NCBI GenBank assembly: GCA_949949005.1
Contig: CATLHM010000002.1
Location: 1-64,000 of the forward strand
DNA: 64,000 nucleotides
Direction of reading: 5' to 3'
Origin: an uncultured Lachnospiraceae bacterium
Lineage (GTDB): Bacteria; Bacillota; Clostridia; Lachnospirales; Lachnospiraceae
The translations under genes and the position numbers were made by a program. Below, one piece after another: positions 241 to 904 of the stretch (position 1 is the first letter of the stretch; every line of letters begins with the position of its first letter). The notes below the pieces were generated by a model. The model saw only the letters and a list, made by a program, of their open reading frames with translations, was not told the DNA's origin and did not search any database.

Positions 241-549
241 CCGGTGCCTCTAATGCGGGAATCAGGTCACAACCCCTGGGGAAGTCGCAGAGTGGAGGCA
301 GCTCTTTTATAAGCATTGTCTATTTGGTGTTGGTCAACAGGTTTTCAGTCCGGTTTTTAATGCGAAAACGGGGCGGCGGTTCGAGCAGAGAACGCCTGAA
401 AATGCTCATACTGGCCAGCAAGTTTTCAGGCTTTAGTGCGAAACCTGATAAGGGAGGTTCCCCCCGACATGCGAGAGAACAGGCGGAAAGTATGTAAGCC
501 GCTCAATAAATTCATACCCAAATAGACAATTTTTATAAAAGGGCTGTCT
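241..549 (+). ncRNA. Candidate large structured RNA with long closing stem
   Basis: This 340-base gene gap has no credible ORF. Bases 296-312 and 315-327 pair with 533-549 and 518-530, giving about 30 bp interrupted by one two-base mismatch and two G-U wobbles. Inside the stem are two related units, 331-404 and 412-490. Each has TGG(T/C)CA(A/G)CA followed by GTTTTCAG, then TGCGAAA, then GAGAAC. TTTTCAG at 342-348 can pair with CTGAAAA at 396-402, and GTTTTCAGGC at 422-431 can also pair with the same segment. TGCCTC at 245-250 can pair with GAGGCA at 295-300, which excludes the outer end of the closing stem. The 3' arm ends 17 bases before the ribosome site of the next gene, so it may be either a leader or a separate RNA. 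The strand is inferred from the genes around it. I do not recognise the RNA family. Confidence 0.55.
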
Positions 550-579
550 GCCTGAAATTAAATTGAAAGGATGTGGAAA

Positions 580-903
580 ATGAAAGATTATAACAGGATT
601 GCACAGAAAGTAGGGAAAATGGCGTCATTCTGCGATATCTATAATTGTGGATGCCCTACCGAACATAACCCGGTAAATTTGTATTTCCAGATGCGTGAAC
701 CTTACATCATAGGAATTGGATTCTATGTTTCCTATGATTGGGGAGAGTGGTCTGTATATTATACGTTAAACCCGGATATAAAAATGAGATCGGATATGGA
801 ACGTGTTAGAGGAATTAAAACTGAACAGGAAATGTATGCCATTGTATCAAGTGTAATTGAACAGATCAGAAATAGCGTAAAAAATAAGTCGAAAGGAGAA
901 TGA
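580..903 (+). CDS. Hypothetical protein downstream of structured RNA
   Basis: A 107-residue protein of unknown function. An in-frame ATG at 571 lies directly against the AAAGG site (566-570), so the ATG at 580, nine bases away, is the better start. The sequence is rich in Tyr and Trp (YVSYDWGEWSVYYTL) in its middle, suggesting a small beta-rich fold, and ends in a lysine-rich tail. It is the gene most likely to be affected if the upstream structured segment is a leader. Confidence 0.6.
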   Translation: MKDYNRIAQKVGKMASFCDIYNCGCPTEHNPVNLYFQMREPYIIGIGFYVSYDWGEWSVYYTLNPDIKMRSDMERVRGIKTEQEMYAIVSSVIEQIRNSVKNKSKGE

Positions 904-904
904 A

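What the first reader, a model, noticed from the sequence alone, without database searches (positions are those of the whole stretch)
241..549. Large two-unit structured RNA candidate in the accessory region
A gene gap of about 340 bases in otherwise tightly packed DNA has about 30 bp of closing stem (296-327 with 518-549, two wobbles) around two related units of about 80 nt (331-404, 412-490). The inner GTTTTCAG(GC) and GCCTGAAAA segments can pair in two alternative ways, and TGCCTC 245-250 competes with the closing stem. The 3' arm ends close to a ribosome site. This combination (long closure, internal duplication, mutually exclusive pairings) is what a large ornate RNA or a switch looks like. 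I cannot match it to a known family.
Basis: partly seen in the sequence, partly recalled or inferred. Interest (0 to 1): 0.72.

Follow-up and report, generated by a model that had tools for sequence, protein, structure and literature searches.

The report
Ribozyme-capped leader RNA in mobile elements
This gap encodes a likely self-cutting ribozyme joined to a conserved knotted RNA at the start of a gene in gut-bacterial mobile DNA; relatives swap the ribozyme for another ribozyme or a tRNA-like cut site, which suggests what such bacterial ribozymes are for.

Summary
Behind it lies a structured RNA (296-549) with relatives in Lachnospiraceae and viral contigs. Covariation supports the closing stem and two pseudoknots. 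A U-run matches the A-run of the core hairpin in length in 59 of 68 units: triple helix or alternative pairing.

There is a two-unit form A (window) and a one-unit form B. Form B follows a hammerhead (cut 104-108 nt from the core in 20 of 21 loci) or a tRNA (3' end 105-109 nt, 10 of 10). In form A, two loci with near-identical RNA and downstream DNA carry different ribozymes. Form B is followed by a small ORF with R-x-P-P, a ribosome-arrest motif (38 of 45 loci; 0 of 296 control windows).

Best reading: a processed 5' leader that guards or regulates the new 5' end; this function is inferred. The body matches no Rfam family; the 2015 RAGATH paper was not held.

The parts
245..300 (+). probable twister-P1 self-cleaving ribozyme; P1 = 245-250 with 295-300; predicted cut after 251 (cut site recalled from twister work, not from a call)
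   Evidence: Rfam RF03160 match 247-298 over the full model, 32.9 bits, below the gathering score of 67.2; the same family scores 48.5-58.3 bits 5' of L005, L039, L048, L050, L074 and L094
296..327 (+). 5' arm of the closing stem; its first 5 nt overlap twister P1
   Evidence: changes on both sides in 11 of 31 pairs
332..372 (+). unit 1: GGTCAACA, U strand 341-346 (GTTTTC), hairpin 350-357/365-372
   Evidence: form-B model R1 hits 332-373; U-run/A-run length match
376..395 (+). middle hairpin 376-381/391-395
   Evidence: 86.2% of cells paired, no pair with a change on both sides
383..407 (+). pseudoknot 1: 383-387 (loop of middle hairpin) with 403-407
   Evidence: 5 of 5 pairs with changes on both sides; 96.7% of cells paired, 84.6%
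422..447 (+). unit 2: U strand 422-427, hairpin 427-434/441-447
   Evidence: U-run 4 against A-run 3 (identical to L035), an exception to the length match
483..517 (+). pseudoknot 2: 483-486/499-502 interleaved with 490-494/513-517; only in the long version of form A
   Evidence: changes on both sides at 1 of 4 and 2 of 5 pairs; present in 7 of 13 sequences
518..549 (+). 3' arm of the closing stem
565..570 (+). likely ribosome-binding site for ATG 580 (or 571)
   Evidence: read
571..903 (+). downstream gene, no Pfam or PHROG match; absent at the same place in L035

Best explanation
Window 245-549 is the processed 5' leader of a mobile-element operon. (1) While the operon is transcribed, the twister-P1 ribozyme cuts just upstream and gives the message a new 5' end (sequence evidence; cleavage not tested). 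(2) The RNA behind the cut folds into a closed, pseudoknotted body of two units (supported by covariation). (3) Relatives make a cut with a hammerhead or a tRNA-like element, by inference through RNase Z, and in form B both put the end at the same place, so the position of the new 5' end matters and the chemistry of the cut does not (position shown by prediction; enzyme inferred). (4) The folded body, and in form B a ribosome stalled at an R-x-P-P ORF just behind it, acts as a 5' roadblock that protects the downstream message from 5' decay and sets access of ribosomes to the next gene (inferred).
For: Covariation: form A 23 of 64 pairs changed on both sides, 0 of 500 shuffles reach that; closing stem alone 11 of 31, 0 of 500; form B 15 of 23 pairs, pseudoknot included, 0 of 500. 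The form-A model was built without the closing stem, yet its new hits L100, L102 and L103 carry divergent complementary arms (read).
5' modules: sensitive Rfam scans put a ribozyme directly 5' of 9 of 16 form-A loci, and in L050 a twister one step further, in front of RAGATH-8. Form B: hammerhead cleavage site 100-108 nt from the core in 21 loci (L014, L051 and L061 share one core), 20 of them 104-108; tRNA 3' end 105-109 nt away for all 10 ARAGORN tRNAs next to the core, in 28 loci scanned; acceptor plus T-arm element of score 13 or more in 21 of 29 non-hammerhead loci and 0 of 17 hammerhead loci examined.
Swap: L058 (hammerhead) and L048 (twister) agree in 100% (rounded, gaps not counted) of 227 nt of RNA and 249 nt downstream; upstream they align no better than unrelated pairs.
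R-x-P-P ORF in 38 of 45 form-B loci and 0 of 296 control windows, with synonymous codon changes.
Downstream genes are mixed. A 5' roadblock such as a stalled ribosome stabilises long downstream mRNA in B. subtilis (PMC3997798, passage); a flaviviral xrRNA blocked RNase J1 in vitro (PMC5760640, passages).
Against: No transcript, cleavage or decay data. The window's twister is below Rfam's gathering score. No ribozyme was listed 5' of 6 of 16 form-A loci (L038, L086, L087, L089, L100, L101); L011 has a promoter-like site instead (by eye). Of the 21 form-B hammerheads Rfam lists 8 at the element (L007, L014, L026, L069, L079, L081, L085, L088); it did not list L080, L082, L083 at E up to 0.01 nor L012, L021, L024 at the gathering score; the other 7 were not scanned and rest on my consensus script. 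Seven of 50 form-B loci (L019, L033, L044, L059, L064, L075, L084) have no clear 5' module. The count of further pair types is not above shuffles for form B (330 of 500). The window and the other form-A leaders looked at have no R-x-P-P ORF (by eye), so that half of the mechanism does not apply to the window; form-B L019, L044, L064, L069, L083, L084, L085 lack it too. In L024, L036, L037, L053, L075, L077 the motif starts an ORF of 82-145 aa, where a permanent stall would silence the gene. Hammerheads are not dedicated to this RNA: 2 of the 7 found in 299 genomes precede it.
Confidence: 0.5

Rival explanations
1. Conditional regulator: the leader senses something (a small molecule, a phage protein, or translation state through the R-x-P-P stall) and changes fold to switch the downstream gene.
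For: Pseudoknots and the U-strand/A-strand length match (59 of 68; permutation mean 36.5) suit a compact sensor fold; leader peptides with R-x-P-P are known arrest sensors (PMC10951233, PMC12992588, passages); alternative pairings can form.
Against: Alternative pairings do not covary clearly above shuffles; downstream genes are mixed methylation, replication and structural genes; the P1/closing-stem overlap of the window is not conserved (L005 has a gap between them, read).
Confidence: 0.25
2. Free-standing RNA: the processing modules cut out a stable noncoding RNA that acts in trans (for instance on a phage or host factor).
For: A defined 5' end and a large conserved fold; in L068 a twister-P1 follows the R-x-P-P ORF (58.8 bits), which would also release the 3' side.
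Against: Among the 20 loci a ribozyme close behind the core was listed in L068 only; those of L076 and L081 lie several hundred nt further on. No terminator-like site follows the window RNA up to 1100. An R-x-P-P ORF starts within 38-53 nt of the core in 38 of 45 form-B loci.
Confidence: 0.15
3. The body is one of the RAGATH motifs of 2015 or another described motif that Rfam does not hold, so the fold itself is not new.
For: That work collected RNAs near genes associated with twister and hammerhead ribozymes (PMC10085705, PMC4604424, passages; the name RAGATH for them is recalled); RAGATH-8 of Rfam sits beside this family in L050 and 1.8 kb away in L024.
Against: No RAGATH family of Rfam was listed for the window body or L004-L007 even at E up to 10; in L050 RAGATH-8 is a separate RNA that ends before the form-A RNA begins. 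The 2015 paper is not held.
Confidence: 0.25
4. Transposon or MITE ends: the closing stem is a terminal inverted repeat acting as DNA.
For: 32-nt inverted repeat; nearly the same RNA occurs with different downstream DNA (L004 and L058).
Against: Arms change together between loci while units and pseudoknots are kept; no target-site duplication seen by eye at four form-A loci; form B has no such repeat.
Confidence: 0.03

Closest known systems
Twister-P1 ribozyme (Rfam RF03160)
   Same: Window 247-298 spans the full model with UAA.GC, GGUC.CAA.CCC and GC.GAG.G segments.
   Different: Score 32.9 is below the cut-off of 67.2; a model hairpin is shortened; only the 5' cap of the element.
Type-II hammerhead ribozyme (RF02276)
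   Same: Sits 5' of form-B relatives and of form-A L004 and L058; above the cut-off in L004, L007, L014, L026, L058. Reported as common in bacteria, often near prophage genes, function unclear (PMC3088659, passages).
   Different: Absent from the window; exchangeable with twister or tRNA-like elements here.
RAGATH-8 RNA (RF02687)
   Same: Same kind of DNA; behind a twister-P1 and directly 5' of a form-A RNA in L050.
   Different: Separate RNA; its model was not listed for the bodies scanned.
RAPP-type arrest peptides (ApdA, ApdP, ApcA; the last name recalled)
   Same: R-x-P-P motif; RAPP and RGPP stall most readily, Ser or Asp in place of Ala is partly permissive (PMC12992588, passages).
   Different: Form B only; 21 of 38 ORFs have at most 16 codons and the motif is near the N-terminus; REPP (10 of 38) does not occur in that paper's text.
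Exoribonuclease-resistant RNAs (xrRNA)
   Same: Pseudoknotted RNA at a 5' boundary; one also blocks bacterial RNase J1 (PMC5760640, passages).
   Different: No Rfam relation; ring fold and resistance untested here.
VIPR arrays with interspersed hammerheads (2026 preprint)
   Same: Another phage RNA system with hammerhead ribozymes placed between RNAs (PMC13142463, one passage).
   Different: Guide-RNA arrays for a Vipr protein; no twister or tRNA is mentioned in its text.

Membership tests
Twister-P1 ribozyme | Match to the covariance model at the curated score | tested here: not met
   Model 1-68 matched, E 6.4e-6, but 32.9 bits against 67.2; so 'probable', not filed as a proven member. The relatives' twisters at 48.5-58.8 bits are below it too
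Twister-P1 ribozyme | P1 helix and conserved core segments | tested here: met
   TGCCTC 245-250 with GAGGCA 295-300 (sequence); core letters in the alignment
Twister-P1 ribozyme | Self-cleavage | not testable with these tools
   needs in vitro transcription
Any Rfam family (4227) for the body 300-549 | Match at the gathering score | tested here: not met
   no match in the whole window; at E up to 10 only snoRNA, miRNA and sRNA models at E 0.9-4.9 besides twister
RAGATH motifs outside Rfam | Match to the published alignment | not testable with these tools
   paper not held
RAPP arrest leader | R-x-P-P ORF behind the RNA | tested here: not met
   met in 38 of 45 form-B loci but not in the window or other form-A loci (by eye)
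RAPP arrest leader | Ribosome stalling | not testable with these tools
   needs toeprinting
Metabolite riboswitch | Downstream genes of one pathway | tested here: not met
   51 of the 64 downstream proteins scanned: C5 methylase 7, REP_ORF2-G2P 6, PAPS reductase 2, DUF5906 2, the other families 1 each
xrRNA | Blocks a 5'-3' exonuclease | not testable with these tools
   needs an RNase J1 run-off assay
MITE / transposon end | Target-site duplication around identical ends | tested here: not met
   none seen by eye at window, L004, L005, L011; arms covary

The most novel reading that the evidence does not exclude
A new class of bacterial 5' guard: a compact pseudoknot (probably with a U.A-U triple helix) that stops 5'-3' decay at a 5' end made on purpose by whichever cutter is at hand (twister, hammerhead or tRNA-like element), in form B backed by a ribosome parked at R-x-P-P. 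If so, providing such 5' ends is one of the jobs of the so far unexplained self-cleaving ribozymes of bacterial mobile DNA.
Probability: 0.3. Interest if true: 0.92.

Novelty: new variant of a known kind. Interest (0 to 1): 0.8.

Why it matters
Bacterial hammerhead and twister ribozymes are enriched near certain genes, Mu-like phage genes above all; the reason was described as still unknown in 2023 (PMC10085705, passage) and hammerhead functions as unclear in 2011 (PMC3088659, passage). One use has appeared since: hammerheads between guide RNAs in a 2026 preprint (PMC13142463, passage). The family found here gives ribozymes a fixed, testable client: a conserved RNA whose 5' end a hammerhead or a tRNA-like element would set at the same place, and which in another form sits behind twister in one genome and hammerhead in another with near-identical RNA and downstream DNA. 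It also ties such a processed leader to an arrest-motif ORF, a combination that none of the listings I searched showed.

Tried and rejected
Rejected or left open: an Rfam family for the body. Transposon ends (no duplications seen by eye, arms covary). A conserved internal switch (pairing possible, covariation not clearly above shuffles). The twister-P1/closing-stem overlap as a general device: absent in L005 (by eye). A dedicated hammerhead partner: 2 of the 7 hammerheads in 299 genomes precede this RNA.

Led nowhere: blastn of the window RNA against plasmids and phages and of relatives against plasmids gave nothing; blastn of a hammerhead-form relative against phages found one unannotated faecal record, MT836660.1. 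With the tRNA-form L006 the 20 listed of 76 records match the tRNA part, except MT836660.1; 56 were not listed. The class-wide R1 search found only the window's own genome among 321.

Dropped before counts: weak model hits L073 (a stretch without the motif) and L105 (no motif); L093 and L096 are R2 hits on form-B loci already counted; L095 is L074 again. Duplicate loci were removed, but some remaining loci are near-identical, so counts overstate independence. L020 starts inside the element. L023 was too short for the leader count. L079 and L088 were missed by the patterns; one search shows a hammerhead (107 and 108 nt) and REPP in both. I added them to the hammerhead distances; for the R-x-P-P count they would make 40 of 47. 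In one search the hammerhead control list has 19 names but 17 gave rows; 3 of these reached score 12, as did L033 and L059 of the other list. L018, L013 and other near-duplicates were left out, and 51 of its 64 proteins were passed on.

Full report
OBSERVATION. The gap lies between ORFs 39-239 and 571-903. The closing arms 296-327/518-549 are real, and the strand folds better than shuffles (z -4.3, 0 of 100). One search reports no DNA repeat for the two units, but a homologue shows that unit 2 is a worn copy of unit 1 (L089).

RELATIVES. Blastn of the window RNA finds nothing in plasmid or phage records. Among 98 genomes including the window's own, DNA search found relatives in four others, all of the same genus. 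Scans with the core pattern gave 12 viral contigs, then 21 including those 12, and 34 genome contigs: 28 titled Lachnospiraceae or other Clostridia, five unspecified bacteria, one Alistipes bin. Two forms emerged. Form A (window, L004, L005, L011 and others) has the long closing stem and two units. Form B has one unit, GGTCAACARGTTTTC followed by a hairpin TTTTT-AATGNG-AAAA. Covariance models R1 (form B) and R2 (form A without closing stem) hit: R1 9 of 37 genomes of the genus, 14 of 397 of the family, 1 of 321 of the class; R2 7 of 37, 6 of 397, and 5 of 392 of the order. Each tally includes the window's genome. Some weak hits are false by eye (L073; L105) or cross-hits between the forms.

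STRUCTURE. Form B: 96.2% of cells pair, 15 of 23 pairs have changes on both sides, 91 such cells against 25 in shuffles, 0 of 500 as high; the number of further pair types is not raised (330 of 500). The pseudoknot between the P3 loop and its upstream strand is paired in all cells, with 2 of 3 pairs changed on both sides. Form A: 23 of 64 pairs changed on both sides, 0 of 500; the closing stem alone 11 of 31, 0 of 500; pseudoknot 1 in 5 of 5 pairs, though 84.6% of its cells pair in that alignment; pseudoknot 2, present in 7 of 13 sequences, at 1 of 4 and 2 of 5 pairs. The middle hairpin shows no double change. In 68 distinct units the U-run in front of the hairpin equals the hairpin's A-run in 59 (44 at 4/4, 8 at 5/5, 7 at 3/3); permutation mean 36.5, maximum 49 of 20,000. 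A U.A-U triple helix or an alternative pairing would give that. The window's unit 2 (4 against 3) is an exception. These tests ignore relatedness of the sequences.

THE 5' SIDE, FORM A. Rfam in sensitive mode finds twister-P1 at window 247-298 and directly 5' of L005, L035, L039, L048, L074 and L094, and Hammerhead_II directly 5' of L004 and L058: 9 of 16 loci scanned that way (window, L004, L005, L035, L038, L039, L048, L050, L058, L074, L086, L087, L089, L094, L100, L101). In L050 a twister stands in front of RAGATH-8, which abuts the RNA. L103, of another family of the order, has a hammerhead consensus by eye. L011 has a TTGACA-17-TACTAT promoter-like site by eye.

THE 5' SIDE, FORM B. Of 50 loci, 21 have a hammerhead consensus, 21 an acceptor-plus-T-arm element (score 13 or more, 0 of 200 shuffles each) and one more an ARAGORN tRNA (L022); 7 have no clear module. 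Rfam itself lists 8 of the 21 hammerheads at the element, 5 of them below the gathering score; L080, L082 and L083 were not listed at E up to 0.01. ARAGORN calls a tRNA next to the core in 10 of 28 loci scanned, of differing kinds (Met, Ser, Leu, Ile, Val, Arg, one undetermined); several other elements keep acceptor and T-arm while the middle is shortened.

THE CUTS COINCIDE. Predicted hammerhead cleavage lies 100-108 nt from the core, 20 of 21 within 104-108. The tRNA 3' ends lie 105-109 nt away, 10 of 10. Both leave a hairpin with a GGC-containing loop near the new 5' end (by eye). In hammerheads that loop can be explained by the known loop I-tail pseudoknot (PMC3088659, passage), but it is kept behind tRNAs too. 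RNase Z cutting is my inference from the missing CCA and general knowledge.

A NATURAL SWAP. In form A, L058 (hammerhead) and L048 (twister) agree in 100% (rounded, gaps not counted) of 227 nt of RNA and of 249 nt downstream; upstream they align at 78% of 109 nt, as unrelated pairs do (69-78%). L004 and L058 share the hammerhead zone (100% of 68) and RNA (98%) but differ downstream (78% of 185 gapped). So the cutter changed while RNA and gene stayed. This rests on correct assembly of public contigs; L048 is a metagenome bin.

THE R-x-P-P ORF. 38-53 nt behind the form-B core an ORF starts with R-x-P-P within its first 14 codons in 38 of 45 loci (RAPP 21, REPP 10, RSPP 3, RGPP 2, RPPP 1, RDPP 1); 0 of 296 control windows. 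Arg uses five codons and each proline all four, so the peptide is what is kept. L079 and L088, missed by that pattern, also have REPP. RAPP and RGPP readily evolve into arrest sequences and are avoided in proteomes; Ser, Asp or Pro in place of Ala partly keeps arrest (PMC12992588, passages); a minimal R-x-P-P motif was sufficient for arrest (PMC10951233, passages). REPP is not mentioned there. The window has no such ORF.

NEIGHBOURS. Of 51 downstream proteins, 7 match C5 DNA methylase, 6 REP_ORF2-G2P, 2 PAPS reductase, 2 DUF5906, and one each portal, DarA_C, Mom, N6/N4 methylase and others. In the window HNH (5917), ParB (8224) and D12 methyltransferase (9907) genes follow, then a DAHP synthase and other chromosomal genes from about 15.9 kb. 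Hammerheads also serve other clients: 7 of 299 family genomes have one; 2 of these precede this RNA; in L106, L107 and L109 a ribosome site follows within tens of nt (by eye).

MECHANISM. Supported: conserved fold, exchangeable predicted cutters, a fixed cut position in form B, arrest motif in form B. Inferred: co-transcriptional cutting, protection of the new 5' end or control of ribosome access. Support from other systems: stalled ribosomes as 5' roadblocks in B. subtilis (PMC3997798, passages) and an xrRNA halting RNase J1 (PMC5760640, passages). I put the roadblock reading at about 0.5, a conditional switch at 0.25 and a trans-acting RNA at 0.15.

NOVELTY. The body matches none of 4227 Rfam families. 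Paper searches for hammerhead, twister, phage, tRNA, RAGATH, RAPP, xrRNA and RNase J1 terms listed nothing whose title or abstract describes it; I read only passages of the papers cited. Subscription papers are missing and the 2015 RAGATH paper could not be read. I therefore call it a new variant of a known kind (ribozyme-processed structured leader RNA) and leave open that the core motif was listed there.

Noticed in passing
L050 1202-1764: Chain of three RNA modules: twister-P1 (1202-1254), RAGATH-8 (1254-1525) and a form-A RNA from 1538.
   Followed up: partly
L068 1395-1757: Form-B leader with a tRNA-Arg 5' and a twister-P1 3' whose TAAT overlaps the stop codon of the R-x-P-P ORF (by eye).
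   Followed up: partly
L081 2009-2076; L076 2213-2272; L012 1362-1430: A second hammerhead or twister several hundred nt downstream (L081, L076), or about 1.1 kb upstream (L012), as if cutting off neighbouring genes.
   Followed up: no
L086 and L100, about 30-70 nt 5' of the closing stem: Both have nearly the same terminator-like hairpin with a T-run in front of the RNA (by eye) and no Rfam ribozyme; could be an attenuator.
   Followed up: no
window 554-904 against L035 939-963: The gene 571-903 is missing in L035: 351 against 25 nt between the RNA and the next gene, in DNA that is 97% identical up to the RNA's end.
   Followed up: partly
L025, L029, L052, L059 upstream of the core: tRNA-like elements with acceptor and T-arm but a shortened middle; look like processing signals, not decoding tRNAs (L025, L029, L052; L059 by eye).
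   Followed up: partly
L106-L110: Other Lachnospiraceae hammerheads without a confident R1 or R2 match behind them; in L106, L107 and L109 a ribosome site follows within tens of nt (by eye).
   Followed up: partly
L101 and L104 (E 6.5e-4, 2.3e-4), L094 (E 2.1e-4): Weak R2 hits that still have long perfect closing stems by eye (GGCTTCCCGGCC/GGCCGGGAAGCC; GGGCGTTGTAA/TTACAACGCCC), probably distant one-unit members.
   Followed up: no
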